DNA from: Rhodococcus sp. ABRD24
Lineage (GTDB): Bacteria; Actinomycetota; Actinomycetes; Mycobacteriales; Mycobacteriaceae
Assembly (NCBI RefSeq): GCF_004328705.1
Contig: NZ_CP035319.1
Location: forward strand, 558,001 to 622,000
Length of the DNA: 64,000 nt
Reading direction: 5' to 3'
In this document: positions 16,471-55,626 of the stretch, piece after piece
Layout of the letters: each line of letters opens with the position of its first letter
Position numbering within the stretch: position 1 is the stretch's first letter
The notes under the pieces: generated by a model
The model's input: the letters and a program-made list of their open reading frames with translations, nothing else
Databases searched by the model: none
What the model was told of the DNA's origin: nothing
Position numbers and translations under genes: made by a program

Positions 16471-17427
16471 GTGGGAGACGTGCGAAGGCTCAAGTTTCTG
16501 CTGCGACCCGGCTGGCTGGCATTGGCAGCCGTGGTGGCCGGTTTCGCCTTCATGTGTTTCACCGTCCTGGCGCCGTGGCAGCTCGGCAAGAACACCAAGA
16601 CCGAGGAGCGCAACGGCCTGCTCGAGCAGTCCATCAATGCCGACGCGGTGTCGATCGACACACTGATCGGTGGTACCGGTCCGGCCGAGGACGACGAGTG
16701 GCGCAAGGTCCTCGCGACCGGCACCTACGTACCCGACAGCGATCTGCTGGTCAGGCTCCGGTCGGTACAGGAGGCCCCGGCATACGAGGTGCTCACGCCG
16801 ATGCGCCTCACCGGCGGCGAAACCCTGCTCGTCAATCGCGGTTTCGTGCGCCCGCTCGAGGGCACCCGGCCACCACCGATTCCGGCGCCCCCAGCCGGAG
16901 AGGTCACGGTGGAGGGCCGCATCCGGATGTCGGAGGTCACGGTTCCCGGCAAGGAGCCGATCAGCGAATCCGGAACCAGACAGGTCTACTTCATCGACTC
17001 GGGCCAGATCGGGCAGTTCATCGGCACCGACCTGATCAACGGCTACCTACAGCTCGACGACGCCCAGCCGGGCGGCCTCGGCACCATCCCGCTGCCGCAA
17101 CTCGACGCCGGGCCCTATCTGTCCTACGGGCTGCAGTGGCTGGCGTTCGGCATCATGGCACCGCTCGGCTTGGCGTATTTCGTCCGCGCAGAGCTGCGCG
17201 AGCGGCGCAAGGCGAAGCAGTCCGCATCCGAACTTCCCGCCCCGGAACCGGCCACCGCGACGATTGTCCCTGTAGCGCCGGAGCCGACGGTCACCACCGA
17301 CAGTCCCGTCGACGAGTTCGAGTTGCCGGCTCGCCGCCGCGGACTGCGCAAGAAGGATCCTGCTCCCGCGGCGCCGCTGACGGCGTCGGAGGCCAAGATG
17401 GCCGACCGGTACGGCAAGCAGCGCTGA
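16471..17427 (+). CDS. SURF1-family cytochrome oxidase assembly protein
   Basis: A 318-residue membrane protein with two transmembrane segments: residues about 12-35 (PGWLALAAVVAGFAFMCFTV) and about 225-245 (LQWLAFGIMAPLGLAYFV). The large extracytoplasmic loop contains LLVNRGFVRP, the SURF1 signature. The family assists haem a insertion into cytochrome c oxidase. A charged Pro/Ala-rich cytoplasmic tail of about 70 residues follows the second helix. The start may be GTG 16471 or GTG 16480; neither has a well-spaced ribosome site. Syntenic with Rv2235. Confidence 0.9.
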   Translation: MGDVRRLKFLLRPGWLALAAVVAGFAFMCFTVLAPWQLGKNTKTEERNGLLEQSINADAVSIDTLIGGTGPAEDDEWRKVLATGTYVPDSDLLVRLRSVQEAPAYEVLTPMRLTGGETLLVNRGFVRPLEGTRPPPIPAPPAGEVTVEGRIRMSEVTVPGKEPISESGTRQVYFIDSGQIGQFIGTDLINGYLQLDDAQPGGLGTIPLPQLDAGPYLSYGLQWLAFGIMAPLGLAYFVRAELRERRKAKQSASELPAPEPATATIVPVAPEPTVTTDSPVDEFELPARRRGLRKKDPAPAAPLTASEAKMADRYGKQR

Positions 17428-17429
17428 CC

Positions 17430-18470
17430 TCACGGAAGCAGCCCTCCGCACCAACGCGCGAAGCCGCCGACCCCTCGCGGGTATCGGCGGCGACGGCCGA
17501 CGGCCAGAGCCAGGACTGCCGCAGTGACGGCCGCGCCCGCCTGGACGATCGACGACAAACGGGCGGCGCGCTCGAGATCGGCGACGTCGGGAGCCGGTCC
17601 CGAGCCGAGCGTCGGGCGCATCTCGATGCCGTGCGCGTACTCGGTTCGCCCGCCGAGCTGAATGCCCAGAGCGCCGGCGGTGGATGCTTCCGCCACCCCC
17701 GCGTTGGGGCTCGGATGATTCGACGCATCGCGCCACCACGCCGATACGGCCCCGCTCGCGGACCCACCCGCGGTCGGTGCCGCCGCGACAGTGAGCACAC
17801 CGGTGAGACGGGCCGGGACGAAGTTCACCAGGTCGTCCCAGCGGGCGGCCGCCCACCCGAACCGGTTGTACTTGGCCGAGCGGTAGCCGATCATCGCGTC
17901 GAGCGTGTTCGATGCGCGATACGCGAGCAAACCGGGCACGCCCGCCACCGCACCCCAGAAGAGCGCGCCCACGGCCGCATCGGAGGTGTTCTCGGCGACC
18001 GATTCCAAGGTGGCGCGAGCGATGCCGTCCGCGTCGAGAACGCTCGGATCACGACCGCACAGCGACGGCAGCAGCGCGCGGGCAGCCGCCATGTCGTCGG
18101 CCTCCAGGTGCCGGGCCATGGTGCGTCCGGCACCCGCCAACGACGTGCCTCCCAGCACGGTCCACGTCGCCGCGGCGGTCACCGCGGCCTCCCCGGCCCA
18201 GCCGCAGCGCGCACCGAGGCGCTGAGCGATCGCTCCGCCCGCCGCTGTCGCGCCTACCAGGACCACGACGTGCGCCGCACCGGACAGTCGACTGTCGGCG
18301 TAGGTCCTCTGTTCCAATCTCATTGCAGCCAAACCGAATCCGGCCACCGGATGCCATCTCTTCGGGTCAGCGAACAGGCGGTCGGCGGCGTAGCCGAGCA
18401 GTAGACCGGCAGCACGCGCGGTGGGGCGCGAACGGCGGACGGGAACAACCCAACGGGATTTGCGAAGCAC
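17430..18470 (-). CDS. cobD: Adenosylcobinamide-phosphate synthase CobD/CbiB
   Basis: A polytopic membrane enzyme that attaches aminopropanol (phosphate) to adenosylcobyric acid. The 346 residues start at GTG 18470, with AGGA eight bases upstream. Signature motifs: GYAADRLFADPKRWHPVAGFG, ATLESVAENTSDAAVGALFW, AYRASNTLDAMIGYRS, and a late NAGVAEASTAGALGIQLGG. Longer frames extending to 18593 run into the PadR remnant and lack CobD-like sequence. The gene is convergent with SURF1 (two-base gap) and matches Rv2236c. With cobC nearby it argues for B12 synthesis in this organism. Confidence 0.92.
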   Translation of the reverse strand: MLRKSRWVVPVRRSRPTARAAGLLLGYAADRLFADPKRWHPVAGFGLAAMRLEQRTYADSRLSGAAHVVVLVGATAAGGAIAQRLGARCGWAGEAAVTAAATWTVLGGTSLAGAGRTMARHLEADDMAAARALLPSLCGRDPSVLDADGIARATLESVAENTSDAAVGALFWGAVAGVPGLLAYRASNTLDAMIGYRSAKYNRFGWAAARWDDLVNFVPARLTGVLTVAAAPTAGGSASGAVSAWWRDASNHPSPNAGVAEASTAGALGIQLGGRTEYAHGIEMRPTLGSGPAPDVADLERAARLSSIVQAGAAVTAAVLALAVGRRRRYPRGVGGFARWCGGLLP

Positions 18471-45256: not shown

Positions 45257-45790
45257 TCAGGCGCGGAGACTCGAGGCGAGGTTGCGCATGAGCTCGCCGA
45301 CGCGCCCTCCTCCGGGAGGCGCGGCGGGCAGTCGGCCGAGCACTGCGGTGACCGCTGACGGCGCATGACGGCCCGCCCACTCGAGGGACGCCGCGCCGGC
45401 GCTCCGTTCGTCTCCAGACGCCAGTTCTTCAGCTCGCGCCGCGTGAGCGGCCGATCCGAGAATGTGTTTCACCTGATGAGCACTTGCCAAGGGGTGCAGA
45501 AATGCGGCGGCGGCAGCGTGACTGGCCGCCCGCGCCGCGTCGGCCGCCGCGGGTGACGTGGCCTCTCGGGCCGCCTCGAGCGCCCCCCACGCGCTCCGCC
45601 GCAGAGCGTTCGTCCTCCGGTCCCCGTCGGCGAAAGCTCGTGCGGCATCGATAGCGTCACGAGGGCGCGTGTCGTCAGGGCGATTCTGTTCGAAGAGCGA
45701 GAGCACCCTGCGCGCACAATCAGCTGCGTAGCCCGCGATGTCGCGGAGTTCCTGTTCGCTCAGCTCGATCGGATCCCGCTCGGTCGGCAC
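45257..45790 (-). CDS. Imm5-like putative immunity protein
   Basis: A 177-residue helical, alanine-rich protein. The opening ELSEQELRDIAGYAADCARR and LFEQNRPDDTRPRDAIDAAR followed by repeated Ala-rich helices (SHAAAAAFLHPLASAHQVKH) is the pattern of the actinobacterial Imm5-like family, often misannotated as SbcC. No toxin partner lies next to it. I chose GTG 45790; ATG 45832 extends it without a ribosome site, and longer starts read through the att repeat. It sits directly beside the left att site of the element. Confidence 0.65.
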   Translation of the reverse strand: MPTERDPIELSEQELRDIAGYAADCARRVLSLFEQNRPDDTRPRDAIDAARAFADGDRRTNALRRSAWGALEAAREATSPAAADAARAASHAAAAAFLHPLASAHQVKHILGSAAHAARAEELASGDERSAGAASLEWAGRHAPSAVTAVLGRLPAAPPGGGRVGELMRNLASSLRA

Positions 45791-45848
45791 GGCCCAACCC
45801 TGCCACACGTCGCCAGAACGCCTGCCCAACATGCGAAAGGTCTCAACT

Positions 45849-45888
45849 GTGGGGCGGGCGGGGCTCGAACCCGCGACCAATGGATTAT
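45849..45888. repeat. Left attachment site: duplicated 3' half of the CAT-anticodon tRNA
   Basis: Forty bases identical to 55552-55591, covering the tRNA 3' end, T-arm and anticodon region (for example GGGGCTCGAACCCGCGACC). Beyond 45888 the identity stops, so only a 3' tRNA fragment is present here. It marks one end of the integrated element. Confidence 0.92.
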
Positions 45889-46156
45889 CGAACGGGGGTG
45901 GCCAATAGACCCCACTGATTCTCGTTACTTGTTGCGTGCCAGTGCAGTTCGACGAACCACCGCCCCGATGTTATTCCGCCCGTTCCCAGCGAATCTCACT
46001 CATAAACGCTGAATAAGCGATGGGTTCGCCCCACTCAGAGATCATTGCACGAGGGCGTGCCGACGACCAGGCGGCGAGTCAGTACCCACCTCCCTGTTCC
46101 TAGAAGTCCCTTCTGCGAGAATCTGCCAAGGCAATCTCGGAACCAGGGGGCGTTTG
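45889..46156. other. Element end between the left att site and the cargo gene
   Basis: About 270 bp without a recognisable gene; it presumably holds the cargo gene promoter and possibly integrase arm sites. No clear repeats were seen. Confidence 0.5.
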
Positions 46157-47335
46157 ATGGGCAAGAGCGGGAAGCGGAACCGTCGAGCACGGAAGCCGGT
46201 CACAACGACAAACTTGCACATCTCGGTTGCGAACGCCTCCAGCAACCGGGCCTTTAACCTCCGCGATGAGATTCGCCAGTCTCAAGCCGCGCTGCTTTAC
46301 GCGGACTCCGTGACGCTCATCAGTCCCCGCGCCAACCTCATTCATTCGGTTGCGGCGATCGAGGACGCGAAAGACCTCGAAATGTTCCAACTGCTGTTGG
46401 ACGTGGCCCCTCACTACGCGCCGGACGCAGTCCCTCAGCTCCAGGAGTTTCTCCACCTCGTTCAATCAGCACCGCCCGATAGCCGACGCGCTCAGTTGCA
46501 GAGGATGGCCGTCAGGTTGCGCCCAATCAGCACCGTGATCCAGGACCGGGTCCGCGACCAGCTTTCAGAGTCGGCATATTCGGAACTGAAGCTGGCGATG
46601 CGGGCCGGCCTACTGACTATCGACAGCCTCCCTGGCGCGGACGTCCGCGACCTCGGAGATGAAGAGATCGCGGAGCGCTACTTTGCCCGGATCCAGGAGA
46701 CCCTCACCTCTGGAAATACCTACCCCTTGTTCGACCACGCTACAAGCAACCTCGTAGCCCTCGGTGTTGAGGCGGGCGTCTTGGCTCCCGTCCCCGCAGC
46801 TCGCCGAAATGGCCGCGACGCCGCGCTCGCGAGTGGCCTATTCGATCAGCTGCCGAACTTCGAACACGCGTCCATGTCCGAAGTTCTCGACATCCGCGAC
46901 GAGCTGCGGAACCCCCTCCAGCGGTTTAGGCAGGGCATCCGAGAAATTTCGAAGGACATCGAGACTGTCCCTGAGAGCCCCGAGTTCGCTCATGAGGTGG
47001 CCGATGCTTGGACTCATCGTGTCGCGCCCGCACTGGCTGAAATCGAGGACGCCATCACAGAAAACACCTCACTGAGAGACCTCGTGCGAAGGGGAATCCA
47101 GGACCCTGCAGGTCTATCAGGCATCGGCGGCCTGGCAGGTTTGGTCGTCGCCGCAGGCCCGGCATCCGGCGCCGCGTCAGCCGCTGCGCTGTTTCTCTCC
47201 AGCACAGTCGCAACTACCGGCCTCGGCGTTGCATCGATACGCGCCACTATGGCACAGCGGGCTGCCACGAAAGAGGCAACCGAGGCGCAGTTCTATTTTC
47301 TGTATGGAGCGAACTCACGCATGGGAAGCAATTAG
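46157..47335 (+). CDS. Unrecognised 392-residue cargo protein of the element
   Basis: The ATG at 46157 has AGGGGG seven bases upstream. The first 20 residues are basic (GKSGKRNRRARKPV). The body is helical and charged (SVAAIEDAKDLEMFQLLLDV, GDEEIAERYFARIQETLTSG, LDIRDELRNPLQRFRQGIRE), and residues about 325-365 are a long Gly/Ala-rich hydrophobic stretch that could form one or two membrane helices (LAGLVVAAGPASGAASAAAL). I recognise no family. The position at the att-distal end, in its own transcription unit facing the head operon, is where phage satellites and prophages often carry defence or fitness genes. A membrane-linked antiphage effector is a guess only. Confidence 0.7.
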   Translation: MGKSGKRNRRARKPVTTTNLHISVANASSNRAFNLRDEIRQSQAALLYADSVTLISPRANLIHSVAAIEDAKDLEMFQLLLDVAPHYAPDAVPQLQEFLHLVQSAPPDSRRAQLQRMAVRLRPISTVIQDRVRDQLSESAYSELKLAMRAGLLTIDSLPGADVRDLGDEEIAERYFARIQETLTSGNTYPLFDHATSNLVALGVEAGVLAPVPAARRNGRDAALASGLFDQLPNFEHASMSEVLDIRDELRNPLQRFRQGIREISKDIETVPESPEFAHEVADAWTHRVAPALAEIEDAITENTSLRDLVRRGIQDPAGLSGIGGLAGLVVAAGPASGAASAAALFLSSTVATTGLGVASIRATMAQRAATKEATEAQFYFLYGANSRMGSN

Positions 47336-47392
47336 TTGCGGTCCGGATGACCCGCAAGGCACCCGTCCGACCCGATCTCGTCAGCGGTGTGG

Positions 47393-47438
47393 AAAAAAAC
47401 GTCGGAGAGAGACGCGCCCTGACTGGCGGCGAGTCAGG
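47393..47438 (-). terminator. Hairpin plus T-run downstream of the head operon
   Basis: CCTGACT and AGTCAGG (47418-47424, 47432-47438) form a 7-bp stem on either strand; seven A bases at 47393-47399 read as T on the minus strand 19 bases beyond. The spacing is not classical, so it is probably a backup terminator. Confidence 0.4.
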
Positions 47439-47489
47439 AGACACGCACCCCCCTTGATGATTTTCGGGGAGGGGTCATCGTGGTGCAGG

Positions 47490-47524
47490 ACGACCCCCGA
47501 GCGGTGAGGGCTCGGGGGTCGTCT
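47490..47524. terminator. Bidirectional terminator between cargo gene and head operon
   Basis: A perfect 14-bp GC stem (47490-47503 and 47511-47524) with a 7-base loop, ten bases beyond the last head-module stop. It can end both converging transcripts. Confidence 0.8.
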
Positions 47525-47533
47525 GGTGTGCGG

Positions 47534-48007
47534 CTAGCGGAACCAGGGGGCGGTTTCGACGACGTCGTTGTCGCCGAAGTCGTCTCCCGTGCCGTAGCCG
47601 ATTTCCTTCATCGGGATGGTGTTGTCCGGGATGGACGCGAGCGTGTCGGCCATCGTGGGGTCGGCCTCGATGAGGTTGAACCAGTGCTTTTCGCGGGAGG
47701 GTGGGATCTTGCCGCGTCGCATGGAGTCGGTCAGCAGGTCGGTGATGTCGCGCTTCCTGGCGGCGGCCGCCAGGACACGGCCTTGCTCGGCGTCGGCCTT
47801 GAGTTGGTCGAGTGCGTTGCGGCCGGCCGATGCGAGGACAGCGGCGGCGGCGACGGCGTTCTCGCTGCCGGGTGCGATGGTGAGTTCTTCGACGGCCACG
47901 ACTACGGTCTCGGCTGCTGTGTCGGCGGCGAGGCCGAGTGCTTCGGTCAGGCGTCCCCAGAGTTCTGCGCTGAGGGTGGTCTCGGTTGCGGTGGTGGTGT
48001 CAGCCAT
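47534..48007 (-). CDS. Capsid scaffold-like protein (C-terminal half of Mu gpI type)
   Basis: A 157-residue protein. An alanine-rich coiled-coil part (GSENAVAAAAVLASAGRNAL, DQLKADAEQGRVLAAAARKR) is followed by DSMRRGKIPPSREKHWFNLI and a short tail ending WFR. This is the layout of the scaffold part that normally forms the C-terminus of Mu gpI-like protease-scaffold proteins in actinobacterial prophages. Here it is a free gene, last in the operon, while the protease is a separate gene at 49791-50417. It overlaps the upstream gene by eight bases. Confidence 0.7.
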   Translation of the reverse strand: MADTTTATETTLSAELWGRLTEALGLAADTAAETVVVAVEELTIAPGSENAVAAAAVLASAGRNALDQLKADAEQGRVLAAAARKRDITDLLTDSMRRGKIPPSREKHWFNLIEADPTMADTLASIPDNTIPMKEIGYGTGDDFGDNDVVETAPWFR

Positions 48008-48521
48008 GATGCTGCTGCTCCTTCTCGTCGAGCTGGTTGACGGCGGCGATGAGCTGGTCTTTGGTGTAGCTCTCGGCGTCGGTGGGATCGATTCCGCGAT
48101 CCTTGGCGTATGCGACCCACTTCTCGGTGGTGGCGGTCATTCGTGGTCGGCGGGCCTGCTCGGCTGCCGGCATCGGGGCGGCGGCGCTGGCGTGGGGAAT
48201 TTCCCCAGCCTCCTCGAGGGCCTTTCGGATGCTCCCCACGGTCTTGTGGTCGACACCGATTTCCTCGGCGTGCCGACGGTTCGACAGATGGGGTTCGGCC
48301 TTGAGTGCTTCGGCGATCCGGGCGCGCTTGTCCTCGCGCGAGCCTTCCGCGGCAACCGAGGTCATGACGACCTCGGTTGTCGTCTCAGTGGCTCCGATGG
48401 CGTCCAGCTCCGCGGCGGTGGCTTCGTCGACGTCGATCGTCTGGCCGTGGGTGGCGAGGCGGGGTGTGCCGTCCGGGTCGGTCCAGCGGGCGAGTGCGTG
48501 GGCGACGGTGCGGGTGGGCAT
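48000..48521 (-). CDS. Phage head-module protein with HTH segment
   Basis: A 173-residue protein from ATG 48521. Residues 1-55 (ALARWTDPDGTPRLATHGQT, DVDEATAAELDAIGA) resemble short phage proteins encoded just after the capsid gene. Residues about 75-110 form an HTH-like segment (LSNRRHAEEIGVDHKTVGSI). The C-terminus (WVAYAKDRGIDPTDAESYTK, DQLIAAVNQL) looks like a Rho-N/HeH-type nucleic acid binding helix pair. This combination is unusual. Role unknown: connector, DNA-binding head protein or late regulator. Confidence 0.55.
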   Translation of the reverse strand: MPTRTVAHALARWTDPDGTPRLATHGQTIDVDEATAAELDAIGATETTTEVVMTSVAAEGSREDKRARIAEALKAEPHLSNRRHAEEIGVDHKTVGSIRKALEEAGEIPHASAAAPMPAAEQARRPRMTATTEKWVAYAKDRGIDPTDAESYTKDQLIAAVNQLDEKEQQHHG

Positions 48522-48523
48522 GG

Positions 48524-49408
48524 TCAGCCTGCCAGTCCGGTGAGCTTCTTGACCGCGTAGGGCTTTTCGACGGCGAAGGCGGGGACGGCGTATGCCTGGA
48601 CCCACTTGGATCGGGTGGCGCGGTCGTCGTACGACTCGACGGTCAGCGGGGTCTCGAATCCGACGACACCGGCTTCGGACTTCTTGAGCGCGTACGCGAC
48701 ACCGGGCTGGACGCGCGGGGTGACGAACTTCGAGACGCCGGCGGACTCGAGCATGGCGGCGAGCTTGTCCCCGTAGGCGACGTTCAGGGCGTGCTCCTGA
48801 GTCGGGTGCATCACGAGCAGGTCGTGCACGACACCGAGTTCCTGCATGGTCGCGGCGAGCTGTGCGGCCGACAGGTCAGCGGACGGGCGCTCCGAGTTCG
48901 GGGTCAGATCCGCCTCGGGGCCGACCGTGACCACGTTCGACCAGTTGTGTCCGGCGAGGGTGTTCTCGGCGCCGATGTGCTCCTCGATAGCGGCGAGGGC
49001 GGCGTCGTTGAGCTTGCGGACGATCGTGTTCGTCAGCTGGGTGGTCTGCTGGTCGATGTACGAGACGTCGTTGCGGTTGATCTGCTCGTCGAGGATCTGG
49101 AACTTGCCGCCCCAGTCGTCGACAGTCGCGAGCTTGGGCTCGAGGTCGACGCCTTCGACGACGGCGTACTCGCGGCCGGGGCCGCGCTTCTCGACATCGT
49201 TCGCGGTGTAGAAGTCGCTGGCCTTGATGATCGAGAAGAGGATGCCGCCGCCTTCGACCTTCTGGCCGGAGCTGGTGAAGAACTTGTCGAGAACGAGCTG
49301 AGGGTCGGCAAGCTCGGCGATCCTGTTTCGCAGGATGGTGGGCTGCTGGAGGGCGACGTCGACGGTGAGGCGGCGGCCCTGCAGGTCGGGGAGCAGCGAG
49401 TAGGTCAT
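48524..49408 (-). CDS. Major capsid protein (HK97-fold)
   Basis: A 294-residue protein. The sequence FFTSSGQKVEGGGILFSIIK, KFQILDEQINRNDVSYIDQQ, LNDAALAAIEEHIGAENTLA and VVHDLLVMHPTQEHALNVAY fits actinophage major capsid proteins of the HK97 fold. The C-terminal SKWVQAYAVPAFAVEKPYAV is a typical A-domain end. Its position right after the decoration gene is normal. Length is complete, with no frameshift, so the gene appears functional. Confidence 0.82.
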   Translation of the reverse strand: MTYSLLPDLQGRRLTVDVALQQPTILRNRIAELADPQLVLDKFFTSSGQKVEGGGILFSIIKASDFYTANDVEKRGPGREYAVVEGVDLEPKLATVDDWGGKFQILDEQINRNDVSYIDQQTTQLTNTIVRKLNDAALAAIEEHIGAENTLAGHNWSNVVTVGPEADLTPNSERPSADLSAAQLAATMQELGVVHDLLVMHPTQEHALNVAYGDKLAAMLESAGVSKFVTPRVQPGVAYALKKSEAGVVGFETPLTVESYDDRATRSKWVQAYAVPAFAVEKPYAVKKLTGLAG

Positions 49409-49422
49409 GGTGTGGGTCCTTT

Positions 49423-49794
49423 TCAGAGCAGGGAGATGTGGGCGTCGGAGCCGGGGATGGCGGCGGTGACGGCGTAGCCGACGACGTGGCCGGTGTCGGC
49501 GGTGATGGCCTTACCGTCCGGGCCGACCTCGACTTCGGCGAACGCGGCGATGGAGCCGCCCGCGGTCACCTTCACGACGCGGGAGTGTCCGCGGACGACG
49601 AGCGCGATTGCGTCCTTGGCTGCGTCGTCGGCTGCCACGCCTGCGACGCGGCCGCCGGCAGTGGCGTGGGCGACGGACAGGTTCCCGCTCGAGCTGCGGT
49701 TGCCGCTGATGCGGACGAACCGCTTGGCGGTGATGGCGTCGGTCGCGACGGCGGTGAGGTCGCGGCCGGGGTTGTAGACGTCGATCTGGTTCAT
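49423..49794 (-). CDS. Capsid decoration protein (DUF2190-like)
   Basis: A 123-residue beta-rich, Gly/Ala/Val-rich protein (AITAKRFVRISGNRSSSGNL, GRVAGVAADDAAKDAIALVV, GPDGKAITADTGHVVGYAVT). These features match DUF2190/capsid-stabilising proteins, which sit next to the major capsid gene in many phages. The ATG overlaps the protease stop (ATGA), so the two are translationally coupled. Confidence 0.72.
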   Translation of the reverse strand: MNQIDVYNPGRDLTAVATDAITAKRFVRISGNRSSSGNLSVAHATAGGRVAGVAADDAAKDAIALVVRGHSRVVKVTAGGSIAAFAEVEVGPDGKAITADTGHVVGYAVTAAIPGSDAHISLL

Positions 49795-50417
49795 GGTGTT
49801 TCGCTTTCGGTGAGGGTTGCGAGCAGGTAGTCGGCGGTGCGCCGGCGGCGGCGGGCCGCTGCGACGCGGACGCGGACCCGTTCGCGGGGCGGGAGGGTGT
49901 GCAGCGTGGAGGTGCGCTCGGATGCGTGGACCACGGTGAGGGTGACCGGGGTGCCGGCCGATGCCGCGACGTCGTACAGCTCGCGAACGTCCGACAGCGA
50001 TGTCAGTGCCGGGATACCGGGTTTGGTGACCCCGAGCAGGGCGACAGCGGTCAGTGCGAGCGCGTGGGTGGTGCCATCCGACAGCTCGAGGTCGTGGACC
50101 GCTTCGACGGACCGGTTGGGGTAAGCGGACGCGGCGATCGACGCTAGCCAGGCCGGGACCCCGACCAGATCACCGACGAGAGTGTTGCCGTCATCGCGGA
50201 TCTCGAGATTGTCGACCCACCCGAGTGCAGGTTCACCATCGAACCGCGAATCGATGTGGCCGAGCTTGACGATCGGCTTGGGGACAGAGCCGGAGTCGTG
50301 GGCGGCCTTGGCTGCGGCAAGCAGCTCCGGGGTGACGTTCCATGTGCCGGTGCTGACTTCCCACGTCCCGGTCTTGACGAGCTCGACGCCGGGGATGGTG
50401 CGCAGATCGGCGTTCAT
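49791..50417 (-). CDS. Prohead protease-like protein (N-terminal half of Mu gpI type)
   Basis: A 208-residue protein. VELVKTGTWEVSTGTWNVTP, PKPIVKLGHIDSRFDGEPAL, GDLVGVPAWLASIAASAYPN and THALALTAVALLGVTKPGIP are conserved blocks of Mu gpI-like proteases, including a candidate catalytic His in KLGH and Ser in NRSVEA. The C-terminus (PPRERVRVRVAAARRRRRTA) is basic and differs from phage relatives, where a scaffold follows. The scaffold-like part is separately encoded at 47534-48007. Confidence 0.75.
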   Translation of the reverse strand: MNADLRTIPGVELVKTGTWEVSTGTWNVTPELLAAAKAAHDSGSVPKPIVKLGHIDSRFDGEPALGWVDNLEIRDDGNTLVGDLVGVPAWLASIAASAYPNRSVEAVHDLELSDGTTHALALTAVALLGVTKPGIPALTSLSDVRELYDVAASAGTPVTLTVVHASERTSTLHTLPPRERVRVRVAAARRRRRTADYLLATLTESETP

Positions 50418-50438
50418 CGGCGCACCATCCCCGCGGTG

Positions 50439-50816
50439 TCAGGCTGTGCGAGCGTGGACGGCGTCAGCGGAGACGAGCCAGCGGTTCCCGACGCGGCGGC
50501 CGGGTAGCGTCCCCCGCCGGACGAGATAGCGGACGTTCGCGGGAGAGCACCCGAGAACCTCGGCGGCGGTGATGGTGTCGACGAACTCATGACCCAACAG
50601 TGGCGAACTTGCGGACTGCTCTGCCAGTTTCCTTGCGCTGGCGTCAGTTTGACTTACGCACGCGGCAACAAGGTCCGACTGAATCCGTCGCATCTTCGGT
50701 GTCCACTGCCGACCGGTCTTGATCAGAGCGTCCTCGCAGTAGGCCAGAGCGTCCGCGACGTCCTTCGCGACCTCCGGTGAGAGGTACACGCCGTCGAGGC
50801 GTCTGACGTCAGTCAC
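50439..50816 (-). CDS. HTH-domain protein (excisionase-like C-terminus)
   Basis: A 125-residue protein from GTG 50816, overlapping the upstream stop by eight bases. The C-terminal 45 residues (DTITAAEVLGCSPANVRYLV then RRGTLPGRRVGNRWLVSADA) are a MerR/Xis-like winged HTH. The N-terminal helical part (YLSPEVAKDVADALAYCEDA) is unrecognised. Placed at the head of the capsid module, it could regulate late expression. Confidence 0.65.
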   Translation of the reverse strand: MTDVRRLDGVYLSPEVAKDVADALAYCEDALIKTGRQWTPKMRRIQSDLVAACVSQTDASARKLAEQSASSPLLGHEFVDTITAAEVLGCSPANVRYLVRRGTLPGRRVGNRWLVSADAVHARTA

Positions 50817-51066
50817 CGGACGCCTCGATCCTCGCGTACCCGAGAAGCCGCTCACGCAGATTCCCCACCCTCCCCAACAGGTGGGGAAATTCGTCCGTCA
50901 GCAGAGTCACCACCGCCATCGGCAAGCGGACGATGGAATACTCGCCCTCCTCGAGGGTGTCCATCATGACCGCTCGAATGCCGTCGTCGTTGTCGTCGAG
51001 CATATGCACCACGAGGGCCGCGGCGCGGCGGTGATACTTGGCTTGATCTGGGGTTTCGTCGATCAT
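50809..51066 (-). CDS. Small element protein, unknown
   Basis: An 85-residue acidic helical protein from ATG 51066 with AAGGA seven bases upstream. It contains YHRRAAALVVHMLDDNDDGI and RLPMAVVTLLTDEFPHLLGR. First gene after the internal terminator at 51113-51147, so it probably begins the head transcription unit. No family recognised. Confidence 0.6.
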   Translation of the reverse strand: MIDETPDQAKYHRRAAALVVHMLDDNDDGIRAVMMDTLEEGEYSIVRLPMAVVTLLTDEFPHLLGRVGNLRERLLGYARIEASGD

Positions 51067-51112
51067 CGGGTGTCCTTCCGAGTTGGCTTCGCACGTGAGT
51101 TCCAGGGCTCCG

Positions 51113-51147
51113 TAAAAAAACGCATGACTGGCGGCCAAGGAGTCATG
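51113..51147 (-). terminator. Internal terminator splitting the element's minus-strand genes
   Basis: CATGACT (51123-51129) and AGTCATG (51141-51147) form a stem. On the minus strand it is followed within three bases by seven T residues (A-run 51114-51120). It separates early genes (51180-53613) from the head module (47534-51066). Confidence 0.72.
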
Positions 51148-51179
51148 TGGGGGTGGGGTCGAAAAATTTCGAGGGGGGG

Positions 51180-51428
51180 TCAGCGGCCGGTCTCGGTGGC
51201 GTCGACGAGCCGGTCTGCGAGGTCTCGGGCCTCGTTGGGGCTGAGGCCGTAGGTGTGCCCGCCGATAGTGAGCAGAATCGGCCGGCGGTCTCGCGGGCTT
51301 CGTGTCACGCGTGGGTCGATCGTGCTGGGCTGTACGCGCATTGCGGGCTCCTGGTGGTCGGGGCAGTGCCCGGACGGGTGCCTGGTGAGGTGCCGGCACC
51401 CGTCCAAGTGGCACAGGGTCGGTGTCAT
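51180..51428 (-). CDS. Small protein with Cys/His cluster and LTxxEAxxLA tail
   Basis: An 82-residue protein. The N-terminus is CHLDGCRHLTRHPSGHCPDH, which may bind zinc. The C-terminus IGGHTYGLSPNEARDLADRL shares a pattern with two other element proteins (51425-51772 and 52880-53416). The ATG overlaps the next upstream gene's stop (ATGA). Function unknown. Confidence 0.6.
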   Translation of the reverse strand: MTPTLCHLDGCRHLTRHPSGHCPDHQEPAMRVQPSTIDPRVTRSPRDRRPILLTIGGHTYGLSPNEARDLADRLVDATETGR

Positions 51429-51772
51429 GCGCCGACGGCGTCGATGGTGGCGGCGAGATGGTGCAGGGAGTTCGCGAGTTCGCGTGCGTCGCTGGCGGTC
51501 AGTGACCACGGTCCGAGTTCAATCTGTTCACCGGTGAGGCCGTTGAGAACGTGGGTCGCGGTGACTGTGACGTCCTCGTACTCGTCGTGCACGTCGTGGT
51601 GCAGCTGGATCGTGTGACGGCCGATCAGGAACCGAGGAGCGTCGTCGAAAGTCGGGTGTGCCGCGTCGTCGGGCAGCTCGACCCACGGCGCCGATGCTGC
51701 CCTGGTGTCAAGGGCTTGGTGGTTGGTCGTGATTGTGGTGGTGACGGTGGTCAGGTGTCGCTTGGTGGTCAT
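51425..51772 (-). CDS. Small element protein with SLTxxDARELA tail
   Basis: A 115-residue protein from ATG 51772 with AGAGG eight bases upstream. Residues about 30-75 (PWVELPDDAAHPTFDDAPRF, GRHTIQLHHDVHDEYEDVTV) look beta-rich. The end GPWSLTASDARELANSLHHL matches the shared C-terminal pattern of the element's small proteins. Unknown role. Confidence 0.6.
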   Translation of the reverse strand: MTTKRHLTTVTTTITTNHQALDTRAASAPWVELPDDAAHPTFDDAPRFLIGRHTIQLHHDVHDEYEDVTVTATHVLNGLTGEQIELGPWSLTASDARELANSLHHLAATIDAVGA

Positions 51773-51812
51773 GCTGTGGCCTCTCGGGTGGTGTGGCTGT
51801 TGGTGCGGCGGG

Positions 51813-51983
51813 TCATCGGATGAGTGAGTGGTCGTTGACGTCCGCGGTCTTTCGGAGGTGTGGCCGGCATTGCAGGCATGGGATGGGGCGGCCGTCGAGG
51901 TCTTGGCCGAGCCATCCGGATCGGCACCGTGGGTCGTGTGCCGGTCGGCCCTCGTTCGGCTCATCTCCATATCGATCAGGCAT
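51813..51983 (-). CDS. 56-residue protein with CxxC
   Basis: From ATG 51983 with GAGGAG upstream. It includes DPRCRSGWLGQDLDGRPIPC and LQCRPHLRKT, a possible small zinc knuckle (Cys, Cys-x2-Cys, His). It lies just left of the iteron region. Function unknown. Confidence 0.5.
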   Translation of the reverse strand: MPDRYGDEPNEGRPAHDPRCRSGWLGQDLDGRPIPCLQCRPHLRKTADVNDHSLIR

Positions 51984-52260
51984 GGTTTCTCCTCGCGCGC
52001 ACGTGCGGTCGTGAGTTGCGTTCTCAAGCCGGGGACGGATCTCTGTGGTTGGTAGGTGGTTGGTATAGGTAGGTGGTGTGGCATGGGCGCCACGCAGACT
52101 CGCGCCAAATGCCACGCAGACTTTTCTAAATGCCACGCAGACTTTGAGATTGGGGCTATCTCTACGTGGCATGGATGCCATGCAGAGGTAGGCCTGTGGA
52201 TAACTCTCTGCGTGGCAGCAGTGCCACGCAGACATGTCGCCCCTCTGCGGGACCCGCGCC
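51984..52260. other. Origin-bearing intergenic region of the element
   Basis: About 280 bp. Left part (about 52045-52080) is a GT-rich low-complexity run of GGTTGGTA/GGTAGGTGG units. The right part (52079-52240) holds iterons and a DnaA box. Confidence 0.7.
52079..52240. other. Putative replication origin: iterons plus DnaA box
   Basis: GCCACGCAGACT occurs directly at 52089-52100, 52111-52122 and 52132-52143 (21-22 bp period). GCCACGCAGAC occurs again at 52223-52233, an inverted copy (TCTGCGTGGC) at 52207-52216, and a degenerate copy at 52177-52187. The palindrome TGGCAT-GG-ATGCCA lies at 52167-52180. A perfect DnaA box (TGTGGATAA, complement of TTATCCACA) lies at 52195-52203. Adjacent to the candidate initiator gene, this is the layout of an iteron-controlled origin. 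Confidence 0.72.
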
Positions 52261-52662
52261 TCACGCCATCCCCTCGGCATGGTCCTCATTGGGGTTCAAC
52301 AGCTTCAGCTCGAGCAGGTTCACGGGGAGCGTGAGTCGGTATTCGTTCGCCTGCCCGGTGTATCGATTCCCCTGCTTCGACATCTGCAGGAATCCATTCG
52401 CGACAAGCCAGTTCTTGGCGCGGTTCGTCGATGAGAGCGAGAGCAGACAGACGCGCGACAGACGTGCATCACTGGGATAGACGCGACTGCCATCAGGGTC
52501 CGCGTAGGTAGCCAGCATGACGGCGACGAGTTTGACGGTTGAACCCTTCACTCGATCGGCCTGAATGGCCTCGTCTGAGAGGCGGCGAATGATTCGCTGC
52601 CACTCGAACGTGGCCGCGGGCTGAGGCCCCTCAACCCACTCGTCTACTGGCTGGGCGGTCAT
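52261..52662 (-). CDS. Candidate replication initiator (winged-helix)
   Basis: A 133-residue protein. The region EWQRIIRRLSDEAIQADRVK then VKLVAVMLATYADPDGSRVY and PSDARLSRVCLLSLSSTNRA form a helix-turn-helix of the kind seen at the start of replication initiators and phage replisome organisers (cf. helix-turn-helix 36-type domains). GNRYTGQANEYRLTLPVNLL is a wing-like end. It lies directly beside the iteron/DnaA-box origin. The ribosome site is weak. A primase or helicase domain is absent, so it would need host or helper enzymes. Confidence 0.6.
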   Translation of the reverse strand: MTAQPVDEWVEGPQPAATFEWQRIIRRLSDEAIQADRVKGSTVKLVAVMLATYADPDGSRVYPSDARLSRVCLLSLSSTNRAKNWLVANGFLQMSKQGNRYTGQANEYRLTLPVNLLELKLLNPNEDHAEGMA

Positions 52663-52664
52663 GA

Positions 52665-52769
52665 TCAGTCGCCGCGCCTTTCGGGATCGAAGCGGGCGTA
52701 GTCGGTGAGCAGCCACGCGAGGGACTGCATGACAAGCACTGCGGCGAGGGCGATCTCAAGGGCCGTCAT
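52665..52769 (-). CDS. 34-residue single-pass membrane peptide
   Basis: From ATG 52769 to TGA 52665-52667: MTALEIALAAVLVMQSLAWL followed by LTDYARFDPERRGD. One hydrophobic helix with a charged tail. It ends two bases before the candidate initiator ATG, and starts three bases after the previous small ORF, so the compact coupling supports it. Confidence 0.45.
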   Translation of the reverse strand: MTALEIALAAVLVMQSLAWLLTDYARFDPERRGD

Positions 52770-52772
52770 CAG

Positions 52773-52883
52773 CTAGGCCGCCTTGCCTTTGTCGTGCCCG
52801 AGGTGCTCAAGCAGTTCAGCGAGGACGGTGGAGGCCTTCACCCCGCGGGCGTTGGCGATCAGGATCAACTCTGTGGCGGTCAC
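52773..52883 (-). CDS. 36-residue peptide
   Basis: From GTG 52883 (overlapping the upstream stop as GTGA) to TAG 52773-52775. The product begins VTATELILIANARGVKASTV and ends HDKGKAA; it is amphipathic-helical. Translational coupling is the only support. Confidence 0.4.
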   Translation of the reverse strand: MTATELILIANARGVKASTVLAELLEHLGHDKGKAA

Positions 52884-53416
52884 ACCTGCCCCCCAAGTGC
52901 TTCGCGTGCAGCGGCGACGGCGAGTGTGAGTGTGTACGCCAGTTCTTCGGCTTCGTCGATGGTCAGCCCGTAGTCCGATCCACTGATCAACGCATGCGTG
53001 CCGTTGACAGCTGCCCAGCGTTCGACGTGGATGTAAGGCTCTCGGGCTCCGGCGTGCTGCCTGATATCGACGTACGCGAGAGCGGGCTCGATCTTGCCCT
53101 TGCTATCCGAGACGACGCCGGGGTGCCGGCGCAGGGCTACGGCGGCAGGGGCGGAGAGCATCGTTGCGGACGTGGCAGTCGAACCGACGTAGGTGATCTC
53201 GTCGCACCACGCGGGCTTGCGGTGGTCGGGCACCACGTTGTCGGCGGCGATGCTGTCGATACGGCCGTCCAGAGTGTTCCACTGGGCGAGGGCGGTGATG
53301 TTCGATACAGTCACGGTCGAATCAAGTCCTTCTTGGGTGTTGGTCTGGTTCTCACTGCCCTCGCCCCCGGTGGCCGCCGGGGCGAGGGTCTCTTGCACTG
53401 GAGGTCGGAACGGCAT
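52880..53416 (-). CDS. Element protein with YGLTIDEAEELA tail
   Basis: A 178-residue protein if started at ATG 53416, which overlaps the excisionase stop (ATGA); a GTG at 53314 gives 144 residues. The first 34 residues are low complexity. The body includes RIDSIAADNVVPDHRKPAWC, EPALAYVDIRQHAGAREPYI and the C-terminal SDYGLTIDEAEELAYTLTLA, a pattern shared with two other genes in the element. Unknown role. Confidence 0.6.
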   Translation of the reverse strand: MPFRPPVQETLAPAATGGEGSENQTNTQEGLDSTVTVSNITALAQWNTLDGRIDSIAADNVVPDHRKPAWCDEITYVGSTATSATMLSAPAAVALRRHPGVVSDSKGKIEPALAYVDIRQHAGAREPYIHVERWAAVNGTHALISGSDYGLTIDEAEELAYTLTLAVAAAREALGGQV

Positions 53417-53613
53417 CAGTCGCCGCCGCCGCGAGTTGCTTGGGCGTCTTCCCAGGCGATGAGGTCGCTCATCTTGTAGCGGGCGAATCGGCCGATCTTC
53501 GAGAAACGCGGCCCCTTCCCCTGACTCGCCCACTGGGCCAAGGTTTTGACCGGCAACTTGATTCGACCCGCAACCTCTTCGCGACTCAGCCAGTAGTCCT
53601 CGCTGGTTTGCAT
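53416..53613 (-). CDS. Excisionase-like HTH protein (AlpA/MerR type)
   Basis: A 65-residue protein from ATG 53613 with AGGAG five bases upstream. EDYWLSREEVAGRIKLPVKT, LAQWASQGKGPRFSKIGRFA and YKMSDLIAWEDAQ form a compact winged HTH of the excisionase family. First gene of the early leftward operon and divergent from the repressor. Likely excisionase and/or Cro-like regulator. Confidence 0.75.
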   Translation of the reverse strand: MQTSEDYWLSREEVAGRIKLPVKTLAQWASQGKGPRFSKIGRFARYKMSDLIAWEDAQATRGGGD

Positions 53614-53719
53614 TCGCACTCCTGTGGGTATTTCCACTCATTCCGGCGATTCTGCCGCTGTCTCCACAAACGCTACATCTGCCTGTCGATTTCCACAAGT
53701 TCCCGCTAGGCTGTGGGAT
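53614..53719. promoter_or_regulatory. Divergent control region with TCCACA/TGTGG repeats
   Basis: The 106 bp between excisionase and repressor contain TGTGGG (53623-53628), TTCCAC (53632-53637), TCCACAA (53663-53669), TTCCACAAG (53691-53699) and TGTGGG (53713-53718). These recurring elements are likely repressor operators. TAGGCT (53707-53712) lies seven bases before the repressor ATG, which suggests a leaderless repressor transcript. Confidence 0.6.
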
Positions 53720-54346
53720 ATGACGCAACAGCAGTGGGCCGAAGAACAGGCTCAGCGGATCGCCCAGACTGTGAAAGACCTGCGAGGTAAGCGATCTGGC
53801 CAATGGTTGTCCGACAGGACCGCAGAGGCGGGCCATCGGATCTCACGCAGCACAATCGCCGACCTGGAGTCAGGCCGTCGAAAGTACGTAACGACAGCCG
53901 AGTTGAGCGTGCTCGCCTGGGCCTTGCAGATCCCTCCCATTTCGCTCCTCTATCCAGCACTGCCAGACGGCGAGGTCGAACTCGTGCCGGGCAACCGCGT
54001 CAGTTCGATCACCGCAGCAACCTGGTTCTCCGGGGAAACTACTTTCCAGCCAGACCTGTTCGCATCAGACGGGGAGCCGCTGCCTGAGGACGAACGTCTT
54101 CGTAACCTTGAGCAGGTCCGGGCCGTGGAGGACGGTGCACGGCTGGTCTACCTGTCGCGTGAGCGCATCAAGACGGAATCGGAGATCGACAGGCTGACGC
54201 GAGTCGCCGCCCGGATGCGCACCGCAGGCTCGGACGAAGTCGCCACGCAGATGTTCAGCGAGGTCAACGCCAAGCAGCACTACCTCGACTATTTGAGCCA
54301 GGAGCTCAAGAAGACTCCCGGCGCGGTCGTGAGCGATGGCGGGTAG
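53720..54346 (+). CDS. XRE-family immunity repressor
   Basis: A 208-residue protein. Residues about 8-85 form a lambda-repressor-type HTH (RIAQTVKDLRGKRSGQWLSD, TAEAGHRISRSTIADLESGR), followed by a C-terminal coiled-coil-like part (RERIKTESEIDRLTRVAARM). No ImmA-like or LexA-like protease domain is seen, so induction is not self-cleavage. It overlaps the integrase gene by 11 bases and faces the excisionase operon. Probable maintenance repressor of the integrated state. Confidence 0.8.
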   Translation: MTQQQWAEEQAQRIAQTVKDLRGKRSGQWLSDRTAEAGHRISRSTIADLESGRRKYVTTAELSVLAWALQIPPISLLYPALPDGEVELVPGNRVSSITAATWFSGETTFQPDLFASDGEPLPEDERLRNLEQVRAVEDGARLVYLSRERIKTESEIDRLTRVAARMRTAGSDEVATQMFSEVNAKQHYLDYLSQELKKTPGAVVSDGG

Positions 54347-55508
54347 GCCGCCACTGCGCATCGGGCAGCACGGCAAAATCGGACGAATCGACCAAGGCGG
54401 CGGCGTATGGCTTGCCCGGTGCCGGTTCCGTGATGACGACGGCGTGGTGCGGATTGTCGAGCGTCGTTCCCCTGCCGGCCGACGTGATCAGTACGGCAAG
54501 TTGGCCGAAGAGGAACTACGCGATGCACTCGATGCGCGGCGAACACCGACCGAGGACGAGATCGACCGCGACACGCTAGTGCTGTCCCTGTGCCGAACGC
54601 ATCTACGCCGCCTCGAGGAAGAGGGCCGGTCTGCGGCCACGATGTCGACGTACGAGTTCGCGCTCGGGAAGCTGGAACCGCGGATCGCAGGCATTCGCGT
54701 GGGTGAAGCATCCCCAGGCCGTGTGGACGCCGCGCTGCGGGCGATGGTGAAGGCTCACGGGCCGACGATGGCGCGGCAGTCCAAAACGATCCTGCGTGGC
54801 GCGCTCGCGATGGCAGTTCTCGGTGGCGCCCTCGACACGAACCCTGTCGGCGAGGTCTCACAGATCCGATCCAAGAACCCACCCAAGGGCGCACGGGCCC
54901 TCACGGGCGATGAGCTCCGCGTGCTGGTCACCGCCGTGCAAGAGTCGGACTACTGCCTGGCCAATGACATTGCCGACCCGATCCTGTTGCTGATTGCGAC
55001 CGGCGTACGGCGGTCGGAGCTGTTGGCAATTAGGTGGCAGGACATCGACGACGAAGCTGGAACCGTGTCGATCAGCGGCAAGGTTGTGCGAGTGAAGGGG
55101 CAGGGCCTGGTTCGCGTGGAGGCCGCGAAGACTGCTGCAGGCCTACGCACGATCCCCCTCCCCCGGTTCGCGCTCGACATGCTCGAGAAGCGGGCCGCGC
55201 AGCCGCGCCTGGGTGACCTCGGCGTGGTGTTCCCATCGACGGCGGGAACTTTGCGGGATCCCAACAACTTCGGGAAGCAGTGGCGCAAGGTGCGCGATGA
55301 CCTCGGCGTCGCGGAGACAACGACCCACACGTTTCGGAAGTCGGTGGCGACGCTGATCGACGACGAGGGCCTGTCGGCGCGGATCGGCGCCGATCATCTT
55401 GGGCACCGTCACGTGTCGATGACTCAGGACAAGTACATGACGCGAGGCCGGCAGCACACGGTCGTCGCCGATCTGCTCGATAGGACCGTCGCCATAAGCG
55501 ATGAATAA
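54336..55508 (+). CDS. int: Tyrosine recombinase integrase
   Basis: A 390-residue phage-type integrase: N-terminal arm-binding part, SAM-like core-binding domain (about 80-170) and catalytic domain. Catalytic residues are Arg225 (ATGVRRSELL), Lys265 (EAAKTAAGL), His331 and Arg334 (HTFRKS), His357 (LGHRHVS) and Tyr367 (DKYMTR). It lies 43 bp from the right att site, as typical for tRNA-integrating elements, and is coupled to the repressor gene. A hairpin terminator follows. Confidence 0.93.
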   Translation: MAGRPPLRIGQHGKIGRIDQGGGVWLARCRFRDDDGVVRIVERRSPAGRRDQYGKLAEEELRDALDARRTPTEDEIDRDTLVLSLCRTHLRRLEEEGRSAATMSTYEFALGKLEPRIAGIRVGEASPGRVDAALRAMVKAHGPTMARQSKTILRGALAMAVLGGALDTNPVGEVSQIRSKNPPKGARALTGDELRVLVTAVQESDYCLANDIADPILLLIATGVRRSELLAIRWQDIDDEAGTVSISGKVVRVKGQGLVRVEAAKTAAGLRTIPLPRFALDMLEKRAAQPRLGDLGVVFPSTAGTLRDPNNFGKQWRKVRDDLGVAETTTHTFRKSVATLIDDEGLSARIGADHLGHRHVSMTQDKYMTRGRQHTVVADLLDRTVAISDE

Positions 55509-55515
55509 ACGATGG

Positions 55516-55547
55516 ATGCCCCTCTCTCGACTTCGAGAAAGGGGCAT
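55516..55547 (+). terminator. Terminator after integrase
   Basis: Arms 55516-55529 and 55534-55547 pair with one mismatch around a 4-base loop, eight bases past the integrase stop and five bases before the att core. It shields the tRNA from readthrough. Confidence 0.8.
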
Positions 55548-55551
55548 TTAC

Positions 55552-55591
55552 GTGGGGCGGGCGGGGCTCGAACCCGCGACCAATGGATTAT
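55552..55591. repeat. Right attachment site inside the intact tRNA
   Basis: Second copy of the perfect 40-bp repeat (45849-45888). It covers the tRNA 3' end through the anticodon loop, so integration re-created a complete tRNA. Confidence 0.92.
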
Positions 55592-55626
55592 GAGTCCACG
55601 GCTCTAACCGACTGAGCTACCGCCCC
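55553..55626 (-). tRNA. tRNA with CAU anticodon (Met elongator, or Ile2)
   Basis: Reading the minus strand, the gene starts GGGGCGGTAGCTCAGTCGG and has a perfect 7-bp acceptor stem with CCGCCCC. The anticodon loop is CTCATAA (anticodon CAT) and the T-loop GGTTCGAGCC. CCA is not encoded. CAT tRNAs can be elongator Met or lysidine-modified Ile2; I cannot separate the two with confidence here. Target of the integrated element. Confidence 0.88.

What the first reader, a model, noticed from the sequence alone, without database searches (positions are those of the whole stretch)
45849..55591. Capsid-encoding phage satellite integrated in a tRNA gene
A perfect 40-bp att duplication, an intact tyrosine integrase, repressor, excisionase-like gene, candidate Rep with origin, and a complete head set (protease, decoration, major capsid, scaffold-like) occupy only 9.7 kb, but no portal, terminase, tail or lysis gene is visible. 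Known satellites (PICI, cf-PICI, P4-type) remodel or borrow helper capsids, and capsid-forming PICIs also encode packaging genes. An element with capsid and protease but no portal or terminase would be a distinct type, perhaps needing a helper for packaging and tails. A degenerate prophage is the competing view, but the tight, overlapping, unbroken genes argue against simple decay.
Basis: partly seen in the sequence, partly recalled or inferred. Interest (0 to 1): 0.9.

Follow-up and report, generated by a model that had tools for sequence, protein, structure and literature searches.

The report
Capsid-encoding satellite without packaging genes
A 9.7-kb mobile element in this bacterium encodes its own virus shell but no recognisable machinery to fill it or attach a tail, and belongs to a widespread, well-preserved family of such elements that probably travel by borrowing those missing parts from a true virus.

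Summary
In detail: a perfect 40-bp repeat (45849-45888; 55552-55591, 3' end of tRNA-Met) bounds a 9.7-kb element with integrase, regulators, Rep with an iteron cluster, and an unbroken head operon. No portal, large-terminase or tail gene was found. It is not a lone decaying prophage. Of 43 loci with MCP relatives, 29 share one order: HTH protein "S_f", short protease, decoration (27 of 29), capsid, scaffold-type protein. Satellite capsids form one clade beside Schnabeltier-type phages; relatives' head genes are under purifying selection. In 19 of 29, tRNA att repeats give 9.6-12.6 kb (median 10.7). Portal and large-terminase profiles hit 1 of 43 loci, a complete prophage. New details: the phage protease's C-terminal, scaffold-type domain is a separate gene behind the capsid gene, and the protease gained an Arg-rich stretch. 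Best reading: a satellite that builds its own small shell and borrows portal, terminase and tail from a helper. It lacks portal and TerL, which define capsid-forming PICIs. Loosely defined "candidate PICIs" (integrase plus capsid) are published for Mycobacterium, so this is a new variant of a known kind. Small shells, helper use, the scaffold name and the role of S_f are inferred.

The parts
45849..45888 (.). attL, 40-bp perfect repeat (3' end of tRNA-Met)
46011..46022 (+). arm-site-like motif GAATAAGCGATG near the left end
   Evidence: 3 of 3 window matches lie in the element ends; expected 2.07 by chance, so the count alone is not significant
46157..47335 (+). cargo gene, 392 aa, unknown function; 19 proteins found (its own relatives), no Pfam family above cut-off
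47534..48007 (-). scaffold-type protein: stand-alone C-terminal domain of the phage head protease, lying behind MCP
   Evidence: the scaffold role is recalled knowledge, from no call
48000..48521 (-). connector-like protein (phrog_2322) with an HTH_23 segment; the connector profile hits only some relatives
48524..49408 (-). major capsid protein (PF25209, NF042926)
49423..49794 (-). decoration/cement protein (PF09956; phrog_673)
49791..50417 (-). short head protease (N-terminal domain only) with an Arg-rich C-terminal stretch
50439..50816 (-). S_f: helical hairpin plus winged HTH, directly upstream of the head genes; found in 38 of 43 loci (alternative start 50855)
50809..51066 (-). S_e, small ORF of unknown function; relative in L001
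51180..51428 (-). S_d, small ORF, weak HNH-family similarity (phrog_144, 0.0011)
51425..51970 (-). S_c, ORF of unknown function (phrog_17603)
52088..52234 (.). iteron cluster, putative replication origin (AGTCTGCGTGGCA, 7 sites)
52261..52716 (-). Rep-like initiator (phrog_270; HTH_36 just below its cut-off)
52880..53416 (-). ORF, weak DUF6907 similarity below cut-off
53416..53613 (-). Xis-like HTH_17 protein
53720..54346 (+). HTH regulator (putative repressor; alternative start 53624)
54336..55508 (+). tyrosine integrase
55492..55514 (+). two arm-site-like motifs near the right end
55552..55591 (.). attR, inside tRNA-Met (55552-55626 -)

Best explanation
A functional phage satellite of a conserved family found in Mycobacterium, Rhodococcus and relatives. 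Shown by sequence: integration in tRNA-Met; own Xis-like gene, Rep-like gene and iteron cluster; own shell set (MCP, decoration, protease, scaffold-type protein) of a kind kept under purifying selection in relatives; no recognisable portal, large terminase, adaptor, stopper or major tail gene. Inferred: when a related helper phage enters, the element excises and replicates. It assembles its own small procapsids, whose size is set by its separately expressed scaffold. The procapsids take in the helper's portal, are filled by the helper's terminase (perhaps redirected by S_f), and receive helper necks and tails. The element then reintegrates at tRNA-Met. The narrow size of about 10.7 kb would fit a T=3-like shell if the phage shell is T=7 (assumed, not tested).
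For: Order S_f-protease-(decoration)-MCP-scaffold in 29 of 43 loci with MCP relatives, no order violations. TerL and portal profiles hit 1 of 43 loci, the complete prophage L083. Second set: of 49 IMG/VR contigs with the scaffold-type domain, 6 have it split and all 6 carry S_f and no TerL/portal; 43 have it fused, 42 of them with TerL or portal (the other, L158, begins inside the protease gene). MCP tree: 38 satellite rows in one 100/100 clade, sister to Schnabeltier, prophiGD08-3 and L083. dN/dS in the pairs printed: MCP 0.04-0.21, protease 0.13-0.29, decoration 0.04-0.32, scaffold 0.11-0.32. Att-bounded size in 19 of 29: median 10,678 (9,572-12,613). No TerL match in the own genome, so a helper would come from outside.
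Against: No excision, particle or helper was observed. S_f is not clearly homologous to phage TerS: hhalign probability 0.4%; the best single score is 7.4 bits to Stiles gene 1, which I took as TerS by position; PHROG TerS family at only 0.03. No similarity to Schnabeltier genome ends above shuffles. The empty-site test was inconclusive. Several relatives have broken MCPs (L013, L019, L085, L086) and the L054 protease looks frameshifted, so decay also happens. None of the pairs printed for dN/dS includes the window itself, and S_f reaches 0.69 in one pair. Which protein is the scaffold is uncertain: records and PHROGs give that name to the decoration-type gene in some phages and to the protease gene in others.
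Confidence: 0.7

Rival explanations
1. A defective prophage remnant that lost terminase, portal, tail and lysis genes and is decaying.
For: Genes clearly come from a tailed phage; some relatives have frameshifted MCPs.
Against: Same reduced set and order in 29 of 43 loci, one capsid clade, purifying selection, narrow size, and shared traits not seen in the phages compared: the split protease, and an Arg-rich protease stretch (30 of 30 satellite proteases with at least 4 R/K in 8 residues, L054 doubtful; 0 of 10 phage proteases in residues 151-260).
Confidence: 0.08
2. An interference island: the head proteins are expressed during phage infection to poison or resize helper capsids, protecting the host, with little or no own transfer.
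For: Loci with S_f plus MCP but no protease or scaffold match (L078, L084, L085, L015) and loci with S_f plus a scaffold-type protein without MCP match (L176-L180, L183) would fit partial-shell interference.
Against: Complete shell set, integrase, Xis-like and Rep-like genes and narrow size point to transfer; interference can go with transfer, as in SaPIs (recalled).
Confidence: 0.15
3. A self-packaging element with an unrecognised portal and motor among the unknown ORFs.
For: Six ORFs (S_c, S_d, S_e, S_f, 52880-53416 and the cargo) have no assigned function.
Against: Apart from the cargo (392 aa) they are 82-181 aa, far below the 426-566 aa of portals and complete large terminases in the ten phages (lengths). 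The cargo was not found in the other satellite loci at E 1e-5.
Confidence: 0.04

Closest known systems
Candidate Mycobacterium PICIs, including phiRv1/phiRv2 (PMC10654092)
   Same: Integrase plus major capsid gene, tRNA sites for tyrosine integrases, prophage-like; some with scaffold genes.
   Different: Defined there only by integrase and MCP; some carry terminase. Section 9, read whole, mentions neither a split protease/scaffold, a gene like S_f nor a consistent lack of portal/TerL. phiRv1/2 sequences were not compared here.
Capsid-forming PICIs (cf-PICIs)
   Same: Own MCP and head protease; tails presumably from a helper.
   Different: By the definition in PMC10690885 (passages read) they also encode portal, connectors, TerL, TerS and HNH; here portal and TerL are not found.
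SaPI / P4 satellites with proteins that resize helper capsids (Sid, CpmB, Rcm; passages of PMC10690885 and PMC12409344)
   Same: A satellite scaffold-type protein that would set a small shell.
   Different: They remodel helper capsids; this element brings its own MCP, decoration protein and protease.
MulchRoom/MiniFlayer satellites of Streptomyces phages (PMC10690885, passages)
   Same: Actinobacterial satellites with own capsids.
   Different: They encode terminases and portal. The paper reports similarity to PICIs only for the portal, with predicted Actinomycetota PICIs, so some of those do carry a portal.
Gordonia phage Schnabeltier and M. abscessus prophages such as prophiGD08-3
   Same: Closest phage capsid relatives: MCP 41-42% identical, decoration 54-62%.
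   Different: Complete tailed phages with TerS-TerL-portal and a one-piece protease.

Membership tests
cf-PICI | own major capsid protein and head maturation protease | tested here: met
cf-PICI | portal protein | tested here: not met
   profile rings in L083, not in the element; 0 of 27 host genomes, no positive control in that call
cf-PICI | large terminase subunit | tested here: not met
   rings in L083, not in the element; no match in the own genome
cf-PICI | small terminase subunit | tested here: inconclusive
   no TerS profile hit in the element; S_f is an HTH protein in that position, phrog_57 TerS at 0.03, no clear TerS homology
cf-PICI | HNH endonuclease | tested here: inconclusive
   S_d only weakly resembles phrog_144 (0.0011) over residues 25-62
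cf-PICI | head-tail connectors | tested here: inconclusive
   one connector-like gene, phrog_2322; adaptor and stopper profiles do not hit
[quoted passage not shown]
candidate Mycobacterium PICI (PMC10654092) | tRNA att site with tyrosine integrase | tested here: met
   repeats at tRNA genes in 19 of 29 complete loci, the window included
PICI (general) | induced and packaged by a helper phage | not testable with these tools
   needs infection experiments
defective prophage | non-conserved, relaxed or broken genes | tested here: not met
   conserved order in 29 of 43 and low dN/dS in relatives; some relatives are broken
tailed phage / prophage | terminase, portal and tail genes | tested here: not met

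The most novel reading that the evidence does not exclude
A superfamily of actinobacterial satellites unified by S_f, a new kind of packaging or switch protein. Each member carries an interchangeable head module placed behind S_f: a full shell, MCP alone, scaffold alone, or an unrelated protease-MCP fusion. The full-shell branch forms a class between SaPI/P4 and cf-PICI: it builds a small shell but takes portal, motor and tail from the helper. Splitting scaffold from protease was the step that shrank the shell.
Probability: 0.35. Interest if true: 0.82.

Novelty: new variant of a known kind. Interest (0 to 1): 0.62.

Why it matters
If right, a satellite can supply the shell alone and rely on the helper's portal to start assembly and the helper's motor to fill it, which would test how specific portal-shell and motor-shell contacts are. 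The split protease in one clade, next to one-piece phage relatives, gives a direct system to ask what sets capsid size. It also gives a more precise gene definition for a widespread but loosely defined set of mycobacterial and rhodococcal islands.

Tried and rejected
TerS identity of S_f: profile-profile comparison gives 0.4% probability; in a search of 12 sequences the best score is 7.4 bits (E 0.0039) to Stiles gene 1, annotated hypothetical and taken by me as TerS by position; the others score 1.2 bits or less. Fold search: best match mycobacteriophage Pukovnik Xis, HTH part only, E 0.0076; no terminase among the 50 rows shown. The model is of medium quality (pLDDT 77, pTM 0.38). Helper cos site: best 24.3 bits to the Schnabeltier genome ends, below the best of shuffled controls (20 shuffles, top five 26.3-36.2). 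Cargo function: no Pfam, PADLOC or NCBIfam match to the cargo itself, only weak PHROG matches (best phrog_305 tape measure, 0.024), weak AlphaFold model (pLDDT 64) and no fold match at E below 0.001. Solved structures related to the MCP by sequence: none credible. Plasmid records with the MCP: none. MCP in IMG/VR: none of 13 pattern matches confirmed, so the scaffold alignment was used. Shared 13-mers as packaging motifs: at most 8 of 19 elements share any 13-mer; where these lie was not mapped. Active-site motifs of the protease by my own patterns: H-type in 26 of 30 satellites and 4 of 10 phages, S-type in 23 of 30 and 2 of 10, so uninformative. Empty site: in all 13 own-genus relatives the best match starts at or within 3 bases of the tRNA 3' end and none spans the junction. 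S_f profile as a stand-alone marker: 211 of 346 genomes at 1e-6, but many of the weaker rows listed cover only the HTH. Paper searches. The SatelliteFinder paper was not held; the original cf-PICI paper was not looked up, so its definition comes from passages of other papers.
Full report
OBSERVATION. The 40-bp repeat, its tRNA-Met location and the gene set are as described. The element is 9,703 bp from repeat to repeat. Genes: integrase, HTH regulator, Xis-like protein, Rep-like initiator with seven iteron-like sites within 147 bp just behind it, four unassigned ORFs (52880-53416, 51425-51970, 51180-51428, 50809-51066), S_f, protease, decoration protein, MCP, connector-like protein, scaffold-type protein, and a convergent 392-aa cargo gene of unknown function. 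S_f, S_c, S_d and S_e are my labels.

THE HEAD OPERON. In ten phage or prophage records read with annotation the order is terminase large subunit, portal, protease, decoration-type gene, MCP, small protein; the large terminase lies at the cut edge in DrYang, and two Arthrobacter phages (DrYang, Bumble) carry extra genes between portal and protease. The protease is one protein of 385-492 aa. In the window it is split: the N-terminal protease (208 aa) stays in place, and the C-terminal domain (157 aa) is a gene of its own behind the capsid gene. It matches residues 322-476 of the 480-aa Schnabeltier protease and ends in WFR where that phage has WFDSAPTAP before its end. When it is searched in 50,697 phage records, 17 match and all 17 matches lie in genes annotated as capsid or head maturation protease. 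I call this domain the scaffold from recall of Mu-type protease/scaffold proteins; annotations disagree, giving 'scaffolding protein' to the decoration-type gene in some records and to the protease gene in several Arthrobacter phages.

CONSERVATION. The MCP has 283 protein relatives at E up to 1e-3, of which 120 were listed (58-100% identity); 186 phage records matched, all below 60%, best 41.9%. I examined 43 distinct loci (duplicates L002 and L003 dropped; seven are contig ends shorter than 13 kb). Profiles made from up to ten phages find TerL, portal, adaptor, stopper or major tail protein in 1 of 43, the complete prophage L083; the tail-terminator profile hit none, L083 included, so it is uninformative. 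TerS profile matches besides L083: L054 behind its scaffold gene (4e-9) and L056 on the other strand (2e-5). S_f is found in 38 of 43. The five without it are L083, L016 (undetermined; no terminase match in the 20 kb held), L086 (broken MCP), and two contigs cut off before it, L057 and L076. The set S_f, protease, MCP and separate scaffold-type gene is complete in 29, always in that order; decoration in 27 of these. In L054, one of the 29, the protease match lies in two frames.

SECOND SET. With the scaffold alignment, 49 IMG/VR contigs were confirmed. Six carry the domain split behind the MCP; all six carry S_f and none has TerL or portal. Forty-three carry it fused; 42 have TerL or portal and the other is cut off inside the protease gene; one (L173) has a partial S_f match on the other strand. 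Fisher exact p for 6 and 43 is 7e-8, but contigs share ancestry. In 346 Mycobacterium genomes 55 matches were listed: the 31 strongest lie in open frames of 158-350 aa, 13 weaker ones in frames of 404-722 aa, as expected for split and fused forms, and 11 further weak or partial ones in frames of 85-196 aa that I did not look at.

SELECTION, ORIGIN AND SIZE. In a tree of 50 capsids, 38 satellite capsids form one clade (100/100) beside Schnabeltier, prophiGD08-3 and L083 (L013, L019 and L086 were left out because no single piece was long enough, L085 entered with its longer piece, and the tool warns of long branches). dN/dS among pairs above 70% identity is well below 1 for all four shell genes; I saw the 12 closest pairs of each (of 57 for MCP, 15 protease, 50 decoration, 13 scaffold) and all 5 for S_f; six loci were left out, and no printed pair includes the window. 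Of the 29 complete loci, 19 have a repeat of 20 bp or more overlapping a tRNA (Leu, Val, Gly, Arg, Pro, Tyr, Ala, Met), with sizes 9,572-12,613, median 10,678; ten have none by this rule, among them L001 with a 25-bp repeat outside a tRNA (9,768 bp) and several contig ends. Loci of about 20 kb or less were searched, so much larger elements would not have been seen. If a T=7 shell holds 46.9 kb, volume scaling gives 13.2 kb for T=3 and 20.3 kb for T=4; that Schnabeltier is T=7 is an assumption.

SATELLITE-ONLY TRAITS. All 30 satellite proteases examined contain a basic stretch (at least 4 of 8 residues R or K) after residue 140, mostly RRRRT- or RRTR-like; in L054 it may be a frameshift product. 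None of ten phage proteases has one in residues 151-260. S_f combines an N-terminal helical hairpin with a C-terminal winged HTH of Xis type. Its place directly before the head genes, where phages have TerS-TerL-portal, suggests a packaging or late-switch role, but no clear homology to TerS was found.

A WIDER FAMILY. Strong S_f matches also occur before other head genes: scaffold-type proteins without an MCP match (L176-L180, L183), a protease-MCP fusion of another lineage (L174) and another head protease (L186). S_f-plus-MCP forms without protease, decoration or scaffold match exist too (L015, L078, L084, L085; L015 and L084 are short contigs). This suggests a modular family, but these loci were only surveyed; L183 also has a minor-tail-like ORF about 4 kb downstream.

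MECHANISM. Most likely the element is a satellite that supplies the shell and borrows portal, terminase and tail. The own genome has no TerL match in two searches, so a helper would have to infect. Small shells, helper use and transfer are inferred.

KNOWN OR NEW. PMC10654092 (passages, and section 9 read whole) describes candidate Mycobacterium PICIs with integrase and MCP, some in tRNA genes, and links phiRv1/phiRv2 to them. cf-PICIs by definition carry portal and terminases (PMC10690885), and the same is said or implied in PMC12409344 and PMC13230959; PMC11389934 lists the satellite families; of these four I saw passages only. The element therefore fits the loose first category, fails the second, and adds features I did not see in what I read. 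I rate it a new variant of a known kind.

Noticed in passing
L013:4849-14997 (G000:C1, about 300.8-311.0 kb): A second satellite-like element in the same genome, with a 27-bp repeat at tRNA-Leu and a 10,148-bp span; its MCP is broken over several frames.
   Followed up: partly
L176, L177, L178, L179, L180, L183: S_f followed by a scaffold-type protein but no MCP match; possible satellites that resize helper capsids with a scaffold only. L183 has two such pairs.
   Followed up: partly
L174:7938-9764 and L186:5453-6493: S_f followed by an unrelated head protease, in L174 fused to a major head protein; same slot, different capsid lineage.
   Followed up: partly
L015, L078, L084, L085: S_f and MCP without recognisable protease, decoration or scaffold genes: reduced head modules (L015 and L084 are short contigs; the MCP of L085 is frameshifted).
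   Followed up: no
L135:4903-7642 and 16572-17642: Two satellite head modules about 11.7 kb apart on one viral contig, perhaps tandem elements.
   Followed up: no
L127, L128: IMG/VR contigs of 11.2 and 11.5 kb ending in exact direct repeats of 52 and 72 nt; the L128 repeat shares a 13-nt stretch with the L001 flanking repeat, possibly att sites or a circular form.
   Followed up: partly
window, about 49794-49860 (C-terminal end of the protease gene): Arg-rich protease stretch present in 30 of 30 satellite proteases examined (L054 doubtful) and in none of 10 phage proteases.
   Followed up: partly
G305:C1 3591891-3624369; G308:C12 660995-667349: Two other own-genus genomes carry a second exact copy (36-38 bp) of the tRNA-Met end about 32 kb and 6 kb away, so this tRNA appears to be a recurrent integration site.
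   Followed up: no
window 45257-45880: Imm5-like immunity protein gene just outside attL; the 250 nt left of attL are not found next to this tRNA in the 13 other own-genus genomes, so it may belong to another accessory region.
   Followed up: no
window 48000-48521: Connector-like protein with an HTH_23 segment inside it.
   Followed up: no
L054:10988-11416 of the oriented locus: TerS-like match (4e-9) behind the scaffold-type gene in one satellite.
   Followed up: no
window 49423-49794 versus 48524-49408: The decoration protein is closer to phage relatives (54-62%) than the MCP is (41-42%), which would fit selection for changed MCP geometry.
   Followed up: no
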